Assembly (NCBI GenBank): GCA_004293915.1
Contig: RDZG01000055.1
Span: 1-63,078, forward strand
Source of the DNA: Bacteroidota bacterium
GTDB taxonomy: Bacteria > Bacteroidota > Bacteroidia > Cytophagales > UBA9547
Direction: 5' to 3'
DNA length: 63,078 bases
The notes beneath the pieces are model-generated. The model searched no databases. It was not told where the DNA came from and saw nothing but the letters and a program-made list of their open reading frames with translations. Of the stretch, positions 47,946-51,764 are shown piece after piece. A program made the translations under genes and the position numbers. Each line of letters begins with the position of its first letter. Position 1 is the stretch's first letter.

Positions 47946-48119
47946 CTATAAATATTTTTTCAGAATTGTTTCTTTCTCTTTTGGAATAGTAGCAATTTCT
48001 ATTTCTAAACTATTTATTTTGGCTTCTATTTTTTCAATTTCTGTAACTATTTTTTGTTGTTCGGAAAGTGTTTAAGGAATTTTTATATTGTTACTGAACA
48101 TAAATGGCGACCATACTTC
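47946..48119 (-). pseudogene. HsdS-like tail remnant
   Basis: A minus-strand frame without a start codon reads EVWSPFMFSNNIKIP, a TAA stop (48074-48072), and then TLSEQQKIVTEIEKIEAK and a final NSLEIEIATIPKEKETILKKYL with stop at 47948-47946. The LSEQQKIV and ILKKYL segments are the hallmark of the last coiled coil of type I specificity subunits, or of methyltransferase-specificity fusion proteins. Removing the one TAA (CAA to TAA would do it) restores the frame. The rest of such a gene is not here. Its 5' side overlaps the end of the 65-residue ORF in another frame. Confidence 0.65.
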
Positions 48120-48280
48120 TTATTATATACTTCAATTAAATAGCCGTCATGAAAATTTCTATTCCAGACTAATTCAGTAACTCTAATGAAATAGTTATAC
48201 CATTTTCTTTCCCCTAAAATTGTAGGATTGAGTTTGTTAGTTTCAACTGACTTTAGAATTTTAGCTTCAATAATACTCAT
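48083..48280 (-). CDS. Unknown 65-residue ORF in the defence operon
   Basis: This frame starts at an ATG that overlaps the HEPN gene stop (ATGA) and is probably translated with it. It reads MSIIEAKILKSVETNKL, GERKWYNYFIRVTELVWN and ends YGRHLCSVTI. I do not recognise it. Its last 12 codons overlap, in another frame, an HsdS-like tail remnant, so the protein may be cut short by a recombination junction and be the N-terminus of a longer lost protein. It could also be a genuine small fourth component of the system. Confidence 0.45.
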   Translation of the reverse strand: MSIIEAKILKSVETNKLNPTILGERKWYNYFIRVTELVWNRNFHDGYLIEVYNKKYGRHLCSVTI

Positions 48281-48990
48281 GGATTTGTTACTTTGTAATG
48301 TTGATTTTTAATATAAGTTTCAACAGAATTAATGAACTCTTTTAAAAATATTTTAACGTTATCTTTTGCATCAACTAATTGAGAATAGGTAGAAATACTT
48401 CCAATTTCTGTAAATGTTTTTTCGCCATGAGCAAGCCAGTTCCTTTTGTTTTTAATGTCTACAAGGGATTGACCATGAATTCCCTTGTCATAAACACGAT
48501 GAATGTTGCCAATTTCAATTTTCATTGATTTTGCAGTTTTAAATATCGCATCTGCATCTAACGACCCACCATAGCTGATTTCATTTGAAGCAAGTTCAAT
48601 CGTGTTATTAAAAATTTGATTTGCTATATTCATGAAAGTTTCAATAATGGTTTCTTTCTTCTTTTTCTCATCATGTTTGTAAAGATTGTTCAGCCAATAT
48701 TTTTGGACTTCTTCAATCATTTCAAAATATTTGACATTATTATCTGAAATAGAATCAAATATTGAAGTTATAGAGTTATAAATTGTGGATTCTATTAAGT
48801 TATAAAGCAGTAAATAAGCAGTCGATCTAAAAATATCTATCCTTGTTGAGTTAATTTTCAATTCAACGATAGACTCTTCTAAAATATCGGTTGCAGAAAG
48901 CTTAGGATTATCAAGCTCAATTACTTTTAAAACTTCATAAAACAATTCAATCTCAATAATACGCTTATCAAATTCAGCTTTAATTGTCAT
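48277..48990 (-). CDS. HEPN protein of the MAE_28990/MAE_18760 type
   Basis: The 237-residue protein is helical and carries the catalytic R-x4-H motif of HEPN RNases at R183-H188 (KNKRNWLAHGEKTF). The segment RSTAYLLLYNLIESTIYNSI near residues 55-74 and GGSLDADAIFKTAKSM near 141 fit the MAE_28990/MAE_18760-like family, which is known mainly from defence gene neighbourhoods. It probably cuts RNA on infection, which would arrest growth; this is inference. It overlaps the DUF262 gene by 11 bases upstream and the 65-residue ORF by four bases downstream. Confidence 0.8.
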   Translation of the reverse strand: MTIKAEFDKRIIEIELFYEVLKVIELDNPKLSATDILEESIVELKINSTRIDIFRSTAYLLLYNLIESTIYNSITSIFDSISDNNVKYFEMIEEVQKYWLNNLYKHDEKKKKETIIETFMNIANQIFNNTIELASNEISYGGSLDADAIFKTAKSMKIEIGNIHRVYDKGIHGQSLVDIKNKRNWLAHGEKTFTEIGSISTYSQLVDAKDNVKIFLKEFINSVETYIKNQHYKVTNP

Positions 48991-50098
48991 ACGTCAATGA
49001 TGTTAGATCTATCTTACCTAATAAACAATCCCTAACAAATTCTATTCTACCTACCACTTTACTTTTATTATTTGCAGCATCAGAGGTAGTCCATTGTTTG
49101 AATTCTTTGGTATCTAACCATGTTGTGTTTACAGCCGCTAAATTTGGGTTTACCCTTAATGCTAAATTGGCTCCAATAGAAATAGCTTCAAAACGAACTT
49201 TTGGAATTGATTTGGAACCAATTGATTTTCTAAATCCGTTTGGAATATTTTGTTCAATAAATTTAAGCGTTCTAGTAAGTTCTGATTGATACGTCTCCCT
49301 ATTTTCAGGTGTGAAATTATTACCCTTTTCAATAACAAAGTCATCAAGAAAAATACTTGGTTTCTTTTTCTGTGTGTAATTTTGATATTCATTAGAGTAT
49401 GTGAAAAAACGAGTTATTAACTCTTCTTTTTCTCCCCTCAATTTGTCATCATCTTTCTTTGAGCTAAACAATATTTTGAATTCAGGTAATTCGGTACACT
49501 GTAATATAAATGCATAAAAAAGGTTGCCAATAAATTTTCCTTTTCTAATTTCAGCAGGTTCTAATTTCTCTCCTCCTTCATTAACACGTCTAAAAATATC
49601 AGCCCTTACACCCTCATCCGTATTTTCGTTAATGATGTACAATTTTAATGATGTATTTAATAGTTTTCGTTTTCTTGATGTTTCAAGTAATTCAAATTTA
49701 TAACCATTAAGGCTACTTAATTCTTCTAAGTCATTCAATATAAGTTTGTTATTCACAAAAGCACGCAATGAAGATAGTCTTTGTACTCCGTCTAATAATT
49801 CCATGTTTCCATCTTCATCAAGTTCAAAAGCAAACAACGGTTGTATAGGAACTCCCATGAAAATAGATTCTACAAATTTTGACTGCATGCTTTCTTGCCA
49901 AATAAAATTTCTTTGATATTGTGGTACAATCAAAATTGAAATTTCTTCATTTTCTAAATCTATTATCTCATTTTTTAGCTTGAATTTTTTCATTAACTCT
50001 CCAATAGAAAAGTCTGCAATTCGATAATTGTATTCTACCTGAATTTCCTTTATTTGAGCTTCGACTTCCTCTAATGAAGCTAACATTATTTCAGACAT
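48980..50098 (-). CDS. DUF262 (ParB/Srx-fold) protein
   Basis: The protein of 372 residues has the DUF262 domain (about 25-230). Typical segments are VPQYQRNFIWQESMQSKFVESIFMGVPIQPLFAF, the DGQQR-like LLDGVQRLSSLRAF and FRRVNEGGEKLEPAEIRKGKF. DUF262 is the ParB-like NTPase/nuclease domain of GmrSD-type modification-dependent restriction enzymes and several phage-defence systems. The DUF1524 HNH partner domain is absent. I start at ATG 50098, which has an AGAGAA sequence at good distance; ATG 50104 is also in frame. It overlaps the methyltransferase stop by eight bases. Confidence 0.85.
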   Translation of the reverse strand: MSEIMLASLEEVEAQIKEIQVEYNYRIADFSIGELMKKFKLKNEIIDLENEEISILIVPQYQRNFIWQESMQSKFVESIFMGVPIQPLFAFELDEDGNMELLDGVQRLSSLRAFVNNKLILNDLEELSSLNGYKFELLETSRKRKLLNTSLKLYIINENTDEGVRADIFRRVNEGGEKLEPAEIRKGKFIGNLFYAFILQCTELPEFKILFSSKKDDDKLRGEKEELITRFFTYSNEYQNYTQKKKPSIFLDDFVIEKGNNFTPENRETYQSELTRTLKFIEQNIPNGFRKSIGSKSIPKVRFEAISIGANLALRVNPNLAAVNTTWLDTKEFKQWTTSDAANNKSKVVGRIEFVRDCLLGKIDLTSLTYDN

Positions 50099-51764
50099 AA
50101 CCATTCTCTTTTAAATGTTCCTTAATGCTTTTTGCCACTACTTGACCTAGTCTAACAGGTACTGCATTTCCTATTTGTCTTGCAATAACTGTACTATTAA
50201 TTACTTCTATGTTTTCTGAGAATTGATAATTCAATGGAAAAGTTTGAAATAGTGCGGCTTCTCTTAAAGATATTGCACGATCTTGTTCTGGATGTCCAAA
50301 TCTACCATTTCCATAACCTAAACATTGGGTAGTAATTGTTGGCGAAGGCTTTTCCCAAAGCATTCTCCCGTATACGCTAGGGTATGTTTTCCCACTTGTT
50401 TTTTTATGGCAAGTTAATTTTAAATCATCGTCCCAATCTTTCCAACTTCCACCATATGGTGTTGCCAACATTCTTTTTTTATTGATAGGTGATAATTTTC
50501 TACTGAAATGATATGAATCTTTTTTATCTTTCTCTCCATCTTTTATTTTAAGCAACTTACCGATAGTATCCTTTACTGTTACGTAATTATCTTTAGTATG
50601 AGTTTTAGGAATAAGTTTTATTTTGCCTAATTTAGAAGCTAGTAAAATTAATCTTTTTCTGCTCTGTGGAATGCCATAATCAGGACAGTTTACAACTTCA
50701 TAATAAACGTGATACCCTAATGATGCAAGGTTCGAAATGAAGTCTTCAAAAACAGGGGCTTTTTTAAAGTTTAATAACTGAGCTACATTTTCCATTGAAA
50801 CAATTTCTGGTTCAATTTCTTTAATTAAACGTGAAAATTCATATAATAGCATCCACTTGTTACTTTCTTTTTCTTTGTCTTTGAACATATAAGAGGAAAA
50901 ATTCTGGCAAGGAGCGCAACCAACTAAAATTCTTATTTCACTATTATCAAACAATTTATTAATTTCAACAGAACTAATTTCAGAAATACTGTTGGAAATG
51001 AATTTAGCATTGTTGTTTTTCTCAAATGCAAACTTACAAGTAATATCAATATCAATACCCGCAACTACATTGAATTCTTCTTGAATAAAACCATGCGATA
51101 AGCCTCCAATTCCACAAAAAAGATCTACAACTTTTGATGTAATTGAACCCAAATTATAAGGTTTTGTCCATTTTTCAAATACCCCATTATCTTTAGTTAA
51201 TTTGCTCCATTTATCATAAAAATCTTTTACATCGCCTGTTCTATAATCATCCTCAATTTTTACAATTTCATTTCTGTAAATAATTTCTTTTTCTTTTAAT
51301 TCAGAAGCGTATAGCATGACAATATCTGCTTTGTTACTAAACTTGAAATATGTAAATAATTGCCCACCATCTTTTTTAATGTGAGTAAATTCTTTTTCAA
51401 ATTCCTTTCCGTATGTTTTGCATTCTATCAACAAATATTCTGAACCATCCTCTCGAGTTACACATATATCTAATCTACCAGAAAAACCGTGACCAGCAGG
51501 ATATACTTTTTCTAGTTGAATATTTTCGGGCTTATATCCTTTTATAAGTAATTTATCTACACATTCTAAAACAACCCAATCTTCTAGCTTAGTAATATTT
51601 TGATAATTTTTTTCATAAACTTTTATTTTCCCACCATAATTTATGACTTGTTTTTCTAAATCAATTTCTAAAAAATAATCGTTTTGGTAGCATTTTGTAA
51701 AAACACTAATTGCTCCCTCTTTTGGTAAAAATCCAATTTTTATGATTAATTCTTTGAAATTCAC
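50091..51764 (-). CDS. HsdR_N-like nuclease domain fused to DNA cytosine-5 methyltransferase
   Basis: The 557-residue protein has two parts. Residues 1-205 resemble the HsdR_N module seen at the N-terminus of type I-like enzymes (GFLPKEG, EDWVVLECVDKLLIKGYKPENIQLEK) and contain a PD-(D/E)XK site: D99 (GRLDICV) and E114-K116 (LIECKTYG). Residues 210-557 are a complete C5-methyltransferase: motif I VVDLFCGIGGLS (212-223), motif IV APCQ (284-287, C286 catalytic), motif VI SMENV (323-327), motif VIII Q-x-R-x-R (367-371), a target-recognition region of about 80 residues and motif X GNAVPVRLG (532-540). No separate restriction endonuclease gene is adjacent. The gene is first in a four-gene overlapping operon with DUF262 and HEPN proteins. 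Confidence 0.88.
   Translation of the reverse strand: MNFKELIIKIGFLPKEGAISVFTKCYQNDYFLEIDLEKQVINYGGKIKVYEKNYQNITKLEDWVVLECVDKLLIKGYKPENIQLEKVYPAGHGFSGRLDICVTREDGSEYLLIECKTYGKEFEKEFTHIKKDGGQLFTYFKFSNKADIVMLYASELKEKEIIYRNEIVKIEDDYRTGDVKDFYDKWSKLTKDNGVFEKWTKPYNLGSITSKVVDLFCGIGGLSHGFIQEEFNVVAGIDIDITCKFAFEKNNNAKFISNSISEISSVEINKLFDNSEIRILVGCAPCQNFSSYMFKDKEKESNKWMLLYEFSRLIKEIEPEIVSMENVAQLLNFKKAPVFEDFISNLASLGYHVYYEVVNCPDYGIPQSRKRLILLASKLGKIKLIPKTHTKDNYVTVKDTIGKLLKIKDGEKDKKDSYHFSRKLSPINKKRMLATPYGGSWKDWDDDLKLTCHKKTSGKTYPSVYGRMLWEKPSPTITTQCLGYGNGRFGHPEQDRAISLREAALFQTFPLNYQFSENIEVINSTVIARQIGNAVPVRLGQVVAKSIKEHLKENGYV

What the first reader, a model, noticed from the sequence alone, without database searches (positions are those of the whole stretch)
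48083..51764. Compact defence operon: nuclease-domain/5mC methyltransferase fusion, DUF262 and HEPN
Four minus-strand frames overlap end to end (8, 11 and 4 bases). The first joins an HsdR_N-like PD-(D/E)XK domain (D99, E114-K116) to a complete cytosine-5 methyltransferase; the second is a DUF262 protein without its HNH partner domain; the third is a HEPN protein with R183-x4-H188. No ordinary restriction enzyme is present. One reading is that the methyltransferase marks self DNA, DUF262 senses DNA or its modification with nucleotide hydrolysis, and the HEPN RNase is the killing effector. DUF262 and HEPN families are each known from defence loci, but I do not know a described system with this exact arrangement and with the nuclease domain attached to a 5mC methyltransferase.
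Basis: partly seen in the sequence, partly recalled or inferred. Interest (0 to 1): 0.82.

Follow-up and report, generated by a model that had tools for sequence, protein, structure and literature searches.

The report
Defence module inside a broken restriction gene
A three-gene set found in many bacteria and phages (a DNA methylating enzyme, a nucleotide-binding switch protein and a probable RNA-cutting enzyme) sits here inside the remains of an ordinary restriction enzyme gene, and the odd 'nuclease joined to methylase' protein looks like the seam left by that exchange.

Summary
The genes are as described. Residues 1-207 of the 557-aa methyltransferase are a real PD-(D/E)XK nuclease domain, but it is the N-terminus of a Type IIG/IIB (BsaXI-like) restriction-modification enzyme. 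The C-terminal tail of such an enzyme, with a stop in it, lies just after the operon, and the rest of that enzyme was not found in the genome beyond one weak hit. So a C5-methyltransferase/DUF262/HEPN cassette has replaced the middle of a Type IIG gene, in frame with its nuclease domain; ORF4 belongs to Type IIG loci too. The fusion was seen nowhere else: 0 of 80 such nuclease domains in named genomes, and none of 17 other module-linked C5 methyltransferases is longer than 418 aa. The module itself is real and widespread: DUF262 adjoins HEPN in 80 of 80 loci examined, with a C5 methyltransferase in 18, and the trio is on plasmids and phages. The association was noted in 2013 (PMC3710099); I found no experimental study of the trio in the open library searched. 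Best mechanism (inferred): the methyltransferase marks self, DUF262 is a nucleotide-gated sensor, HEPN the RNase effector. The attached nuclease is probably a leftover, though its active site is intact.

The parts
51138..51764 (-). N-terminal nuclease domain (GTG start) of a Type IIG/IIB R-M enzyme, in frame with the methyltransferase; D99, E114, K116
   Evidence: PADLOC REase_MTase_IIG 1.8e-40; up to 75% identity to N-domains of named genomes; model matches BsaXI, Foldseek E 1.3e-8
50091..51137 (-). C5-cytosine DNA methyltransferase (C286 in the PCQ motif), without a start region of its own
   Evidence: Pfam DNA_methylase 4.5e-68; 75.6% identical to the free-standing enzyme of same-genus genome G400
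48980..50104 (-). DUF262 (GmrSD_N, ParB/Srx-like) protein, DGVQR motif, no DUF1524
   Evidence: Pfam 1.2e-24; PADLOC NsnA 1.3e-52; ParB-type matches by Foldseek with low TM-scores
48277..48990 (-). HEPN protein, MAE_28990 family, R183-x4-H188
   Evidence: Pfam PF18737 2.2e-23; R and H in 80 of 80
48083..48280 (-). ORF4, 65 aa, small protein of Type IIG loci
   Evidence: Homologues follow the Type IIG gene in 5 of 95 N-domain loci (93 without two duplicates) and lie in 0 of 89 DUF262-HEPN loci
47949..48092 (-). Relic of the C-terminal tail of a Type IIG gene, with an in-frame stop
   Evidence: 74% identical to residues 1202-1248 of the L149 enzyme, 1 TAA; 57% to residues 1218-1266 of the L075 enzyme

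Best explanation
A C5-methyltransferase/DUF262/HEPN defence cassette has replaced the middle of a Type IIG restriction-modification gene. The Type IIG start and nuclease domain are now joined in frame to the methyltransferase, which has lost its own start, and ORF4 and a Type IIG tail remain downstream. Shown by sequence: the two-sided Type IIG remnant, the in-frame junction at about residues 203-211, and the conserved module elsewhere. Inferred mechanism: the methyltransferase methylates one motif on host DNA; the DUF262 protein, a ParB-type nucleotide-binding switch, recognises foreign or unmethylated DNA; it then releases the HEPN ribonuclease, which cuts RNA and stops infection. The attached nuclease domain most likely adds little; its lasting use may be to supply promoter and start codon.
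For: One Type IIG protein (L149, Flavobacterium psychrotolerans, 1248 aa) matches with residues 3-209 (73%) and 1202-1248 (74%) the two sides of the operon; the only other match in the genome is a weak one (E 9.8e-4) to residues 1115-1237 on another contig. Of 9 Type IIG proteins that match the N-domain side, 7 also match the tail side. The junction is visible in alignment. In 3 of the 5 ORF4-bearing Type IIG loci (L135, L161, L221) a Type IIG tail relic follows ORF4, the order seen downstream of the module here. Same-genus genome G400 has the free-standing cassette in the same gene order. DUF262 adjoins HEPN in 80 of 80 loci. On the DUF262 tree the C5 label needs 4 changes (shuffled mean 16.4, 0 of 500 as low), and 17 of 18 C5-linked rows lie in one 100/99 set of 30 rows. 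Phages and viral contigs carry the trio. The same methyltransferase subfamily also stands beside GHKL ATPases that PADLOC models as Type II restriction enzymes, which fits a self-marking role.
Against: 56 of 80 DUF262-HEPN pairs showed no C5 or N4/N6 methyltransferase to my two profiles within 700 bases (at least one of them, L238, has an Eco57I-type methylase gene next door), so the pair can probably act without one and self-marking may not be the methyltransferase's role. The N4/N6 label is not clustered on the tree (5 changes, shuffled 5.9). DNA sensing, nucleotide hydrolysis and RNA cutting were not tested. The fusion keeps all 67 highly conserved N-domain positions, as a working nuclease would (the 80 others deviate at 0.9 on average, median 0). 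Its end branch is long (0.41, median 0.17; 74 of 81 rows have shorter ones), so the fusion may not be very recent.
Confidence: 0.78

Rival explanations
1. The fusion is a working single-chain enzyme: the methyltransferase target domain brings the PD-(D/E)XK domain to unmethylated sites, making a 5mC version of a Type IIC enzyme with DUF262-HEPN as a second layer.
For: Intact open frame, catalytic residues and 67 of 67 conserved positions; Type IIG enzymes show that nuclease and methyltransferase can share one recognition module (PMC4081073, passages read).
Against: Seen in one genome: 0 of 80 N-domain frames hold the C5 motif and none of 17 other module-linked C5 proteins is longer than 418 aa. 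The Type IIG part after residue 209 is lost; in BsaXI a helical connector follows the nuclease domain (PMC11997821, passages read). Residues 192-209 have pLDDT under 50.
Confidence: 0.15
2. The locus is a member of a named system, Menshen or PD-T4-2.
For: DUF262 matches NsnA (1.3e-52) and PD-T4-2_A (1.8e-30). PD-T4-2 is listed with both DUF262 and a HEPN domain (PMC10952713, passages read).
Against: No ATPase or OLD-type gene stands in the operon; the NsnB profile matches an AAA ATPase. Of 9 HEPN proteins scanned against PADLOC, the window's had one weak match (CARF-HEPN, E 0.016) and the other 8 none at the limits used.
Confidence: 0.1
3. The junction is an assembly error joining a Type IIG gene to the module.
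For: The genome is a draft of 156 contigs.
Against: Both ends of the Type IIG gene flank the module in the right order and strand, and the rest of it was not found elsewhere in the assembly beyond one weak hit; ORF4 follows the HEPN stop with an ATGA overlap like that between Type IIG gene and ORF4 in L179 and L161.
Confidence: 0.04
4. DUF262-HEPN is a modification-dependent (Type IV-like) killer aimed at foreign modified DNA, with the methyltransferase as a decoy or regulator.
For: GmrSD and BrxU act on modified cytosines and carry DUF262 (PMC10952713, passages read); most pairs showed no methyltransferase.
Against: A 5mC-dependent killer beside a 5mC methyltransferase would threaten the host; the C5 enzyme is a stable partner of one DUF262 clade.
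Confidence: 0.15

Closest known systems
HEPN MAE_28990 / ParB (DUF262) / DNA methylase operons of Anantharaman et al. 2013 (PMC3710099, passages read)
   Same: Same gene families in one predicted operon; reading their 'ParB nuclease' as DUF262 is mine, they use 'ParB (DUF262)' elsewhere in the table
   Different: Here the methyltransferase carries a Type IIG nuclease domain and the cassette lies inside a gutted Type IIG gene
PD-T4-2 (Vassallo et al. 2022, PMC9519451, passages read)
   Same: DUF262 protein with a HEPN-type partner (PMC10952713); deleting PD-T4-2 raised T4 plating in its native strain
   Different: No methyltransferase mentioned in the passages read; the HEPN protein here has no PD-T4-2 profile match
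Type IIG/IIB enzymes such as BsaXI (PMC11997821, passages read)
   Same: N-terminal nuclease domain: Foldseek E 1.3e-8, same D-ExK spacing
   Different: What follows the nuclease domain (connector, N6 methylase, target recognition) is replaced by a C5 methyltransferase
Menshen (NsnA)
   Same: DUF262 protein matches the NsnA profile over residues 39-359 of 374
   Different: No NsnB-like ATPase beside it; HEPN and methyltransferase instead
C5 methyltransferase + GHKL ATPase (paraMORC) R-M loci (PMC2292703, passages read)
   Same: Same C5 methyltransferase subfamily, 46-57% identity in the five loci looked at
   Different: The neighbour there is a GHKL ATPase protein, not DUF262-HEPN

Membership tests
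MAE_28990 HEPN / ParB-DUF262 / DNA methylase operon (2013) | HEPN_MAE_28990 above Pfam cut-off with R-x4-H | tested here: met
   84.0 bits against cut-off 26.8; R183/H188
MAE_28990 HEPN / ParB-DUF262 / DNA methylase operon (2013) | Adjacent DUF262 and DNA methylase | tested here: met
Menshen | NsnA-type DUF262 protein | tested here: met
   PDLC03877 1.3e-52
Menshen | NsnB (ATPase) and NsnC beside it | tested here: not met
   Neighbours are HEPN and C5 methyltransferase; beyond them an OmpA-like protein (by reading) and a PIF1-like helicase; NsnB profile matches an ATPase; NsnC itself was not modelled here
PD-T4-2 | PD-T4-2_A-type DUF262 | tested here: inconclusive
   1.8e-30, weaker than NsnA
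PD-T4-2 | PD-T4-2_B partner | tested here: inconclusive
   No such match for the HEPN protein; whether PADLOC holds that partner is not known to me; Pfam HEPN_RiboL-PSP 36.7 bits
GmrSD / BrxU Type IV | DUF1524 HNH nuclease | tested here: not met
   Only GmrSD_N found
Type IIG/IIC R-M | N-terminal PD-(D/E)XK domain | tested here: met
Type IIG/IIC R-M | Gamma-class (NPPY) methylase and target-recognition part in the same chain | tested here: not met
   C5 methyltransferase instead; Type IIG middle not found in the genome apart from one weak hit
Type II R-M | Cleavage of unmethylated target DNA | not testable with these tools
   Needs biochemistry

The most novel reading that the evidence does not exclude
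A two-layer, single-operon system: a fused PD-(D/E)XK-C5 methyltransferase cuts unmethylated invaders as a 5mC-type combined R-M enzyme, and DUF262-HEPN shuts down RNA if that fails. The conserved ends of Type IIG genes (nuclease domain and C-terminal tail) would then work as docking sites that capture and swap foreign defence cassettes.
Probability: 0.12. Interest if true: 0.75.

Novelty: new variant of a known kind. Interest (0 to 1): 0.48.

Why it matters
It separates a striking-looking fusion from the system behind it: a widespread, partly phage-borne 5mC methyltransferase/DUF262/HEPN module that was predicted in 2013 and for which I found no test in the papers searched. It would be a restriction-like system whose effector is an RNase. 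The locus also shows how defence genes may swap by dropping between conserved ends of a Type IIG gene, which can create a chimeric enzyme in one step.

Tried and rejected
Menshen membership: rejected, no NsnB-like ATPase partner. A conserved third gene upstream of many cyanobacterial pairs: rejected; of 10 large neighbours scanned, 4 are aconitases (3 of type B, 1 of the other kind in L090), 3 helicases or Res subunits, and one each a Clp ATPase, a citrate transporter and an Eco57I-type methylase. Empty-site comparison: in the relatives fetched, the best OmpA-like and PIF1 matches are on different contigs, so no empty site could be compared. A viral scan with the DUF262 protein found nothing; a scan with a HEPN alignment found 8 loci. 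Codon-position comparison of N-domains cannot separate time before and after fusion, so no selection claim is made. A PDB sequence search with the N-domain profile found nothing. Paper searches (open PMC library only): 8, 48 and 97 gave no study of the trio beyond the 2013 paper and a review; one gave reviews, genome surveys and Vassallo 2022; 9 only unrelated papers; 51 and 116 nothing; one listed 12 of 22 papers, none about a C5-nuclease fusion by title or start of abstract; 98 listed 12 of 367.
Full report
WHAT IS THERE. The minus strand at 51764-48083 carries four overlapping frames: a 557-aa methyltransferase, a 374-aa DUF262 protein, a 237-aa HEPN protein and a 65-aa ORF4; overlaps are 14 (or 8 from the second ATG), 11 and 4 bases. 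Pfam identifies DNA_methylase, GmrSD_N and HEPN_MAE_28990 well above cut-off; HSDR_N_2 is just below its cut-off on the whole protein. ORF4 has no Pfam match (the scan held 64 of its 65 residues).

THE NUCLEASE DOMAIN. PADLOC matches residues 2-209 to positions 6-212 of a 1271-position Type IIG restriction enzyme-methyltransferase profile, E 1.8e-40. Among 395 genomes of the window's phylum, 25 (the window's own included) had a match to this region; the four best others are 57-69% identical and lie in frames of 1222-1266 aa, and the 14 weakest are short frames of 150-199 aa with E near 1e-5 to 1e-3. A scan of named genomes kept 80 loci, 60-75% identical, in several phyla. In 71 of 80 the frame holds an NPPY/F/W motif; of the other 9, seven run off the stored stretch and two (L206, L219) stop early. 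0 of 80 hold the C5 motif GxPCQ. The one viral hit is an 866-aa frame with the NPP motif. An AlphaFold model from 48 sequences (pLDDT 81.9) matches the BsaXI RM subunit, a Type IIB enzyme (Foldseek E 1.3e-8, probability 1.00, 27% identity). BsaXI loses cleavage when E73, D90, E105 or K107 is mutated (PMC11997821, passages read); D99, E114 and K116 here have the same spacing (15 and 2 residues).

THE SCAR. Of 9 Type IIG-type proteins that match the N-domain side of the window, 7 also match, with their last 37-54 residues, a stretch within 48107-47949 on the same strand and in order; two (L081, L084; 964 and 933 aa) do not. With the L149 enzyme (1248 aa) against the whole own genome, residues 3-209 lie at 51758-51138 (73%), 1202-1248 at 48092-47955 (74%, one TAA), and the only other match is to residues 1115-1237 on another contig (33%, E 9.8e-4); residues 210-1114 match nothing. 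The alignment runs Type IIG-like up to 'KPYN' near residue 204 and is methyltransferase from about residue 211. ORF4 homologues (44-70% identity) lie directly after the Type IIG gene in 5 of 95 N-domain loci (two of the 95 are duplicates) and in 0 of 89 DUF262-HEPN loci (positions). In 3 of those 5 a Type IIG tail relic follows ORF4, the order seen downstream of the module here. I infer that the cassette replaced the Type IIG part between nuclease domain and ORF4.

THE MODULE ELSEWHERE. The same-genus genome G400 has methyltransferase (356 aa, 75.6%), DUF262 (49%) and HEPN (34%) in the same order without the nuclease domain. I annotated 79 further loci: 4 plasmids (all hits), the 14 other matches (one under the family cut-off), G400 (found through its methyltransferase), 11 of the 14 matching genomes among 388 in the phylum of G404 (the 3 under cut-off dropped), and one locus from each of 49 of the 68 matching genomes among 377 in the phylum of G405 (picked by hand, best first). 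With the window, a same-strand DUF262 gene within 400 bases was found in 80 of 80 (two of them fragments, L247 and L276); partners within 700 bases were C5 methyltransferase 18, N4/N6 methyltransferase 6, neither 56. The profiles were trained on these loci, and other methylase classes are missed: L238, counted as neither, has an Eco57I-type methylase gene next door. The C5 gene is upstream or downstream, and on the opposite strand in 7 of 18. On a DUF262 tree of 78 rows (the two fragments dropped), 17 of 18 C5-linked rows fall in one set of 30 (100/99); the label needs 4 changes against 16.4 in shuffles (0 of 500 as low), while the N4/N6 label is not clustered (5 against 5.9; 56 of 500 as low). 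Fifteen of the 17 other C5 enzymes are 42-74% identical to the window's, two (L239, L291) only 22-25%.

PHAGES AND OTHER PARTNERS. HEPN homologues occur in 11 phage records: 9 of Moraxella phages and 2 of the P2-like phage P24B2. In Mcat32, the one Moraxella phage examined, DUF262 and the C5 enzyme adjoin it. In P24B2 a DUF262 gene adjoins it, and the C5 gene is split over two frames, so it is probably broken there. Of 8 viral contigs found with the HEPN alignment (two pairs identical in the stretch compared), 8 have DUF262 and 7 a C5 match; the eighth ends at the HEPN gene. The same methyltransferase subfamily also stands beside other genes. Of nine neighbourhoods that I picked from the hits, five have a GHKL ATPase protein (HATPase_c_3 in 5 of 5; PADLOC REase_II in 4 of 4 scanned), one a Z1 protein with a Vsr nuclease, one Vsr with DrmD and an MmeI-like gene, and two DUF262-HEPN. 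This fits a self-marking enzyme with exchangeable effectors.

MECHANISM. Shown: gene order, R-x4-H in 80 of 80 HEPN and DGxQR in 76 of 80 DUF262 proteins, two of the four misses being the fragments, and ParB-like structural matches for DUF262 (Noc E 1.4e-4; BrxU E 5.4e-3; TM-scores low; model pLDDT 86.7). From papers: DUF262 in SspE hydrolyses nucleotides and triggers its nuclease domain, and BrxU changes form on nucleotide binding (PMC10952713, passages read); deleting PD-T4-2 raised T4 plating in its native strain (PMC9519451, passages read). Inferred: methyltransferase marks self, DUF262 senses, HEPN cuts RNA. I put this ordering at about even odds, and a working role for the fused nuclease at about 0.15.

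NOVELTY. The operon was predicted in 2013 (PMC3710099, passages read). PMC4081073 (passages read) says most Type IIC enzymes join a PD-D/EXK domain to a gamma-class methylase and names one alpha-class exception, so a C5 fusion would be unusual if functional. The Menshen paper PMC12065111 was not held and not read. The odds and scores are those I first wrote; the recount did not change them.

Noticed in passing
L135, L161, L221: Type IIG loci with the order short Type IIG gene, ORF4, second Type IIG C-terminal relic: the Type IIG middle itself looks like an exchanged cassette.
   Followed up: partly
L086, L087, L093, L243, L261, L269: DUF262-HEPN pairs beside an N4/N6 methyltransferase-type gene; in L087 and L093 it carries a C-terminal SNase-like domain.
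   Followed up: partly
L238:299-3280: A 994-aa Eco57I-type methylase gene, with a weak HSDR_N match at its N-terminus, stands directly before a DUF262-HEPN pair: a Type IIG-like enzyme next to the pair without fusion.
   Followed up: no
L294, L296, L298, L301, L302: The same C5 methyltransferase subfamily beside GHKL ATPases, including on an E. coli phage and an archaeal plasmid.
   Followed up: partly
window 48980-50104: PADLOC holds a 372-position 'Type II restriction enzyme' model (PDLC03418) that matches the DUF262 protein at 3.6e-10: some DUF262 proteins are already catalogued as restriction enzymes.
   Followed up: no
G000:C52:27872-28294: A second, weak DUF262 match (24% identity) in the same genome; several other C5 methyltransferase matches are elsewhere in it.
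   Followed up: no
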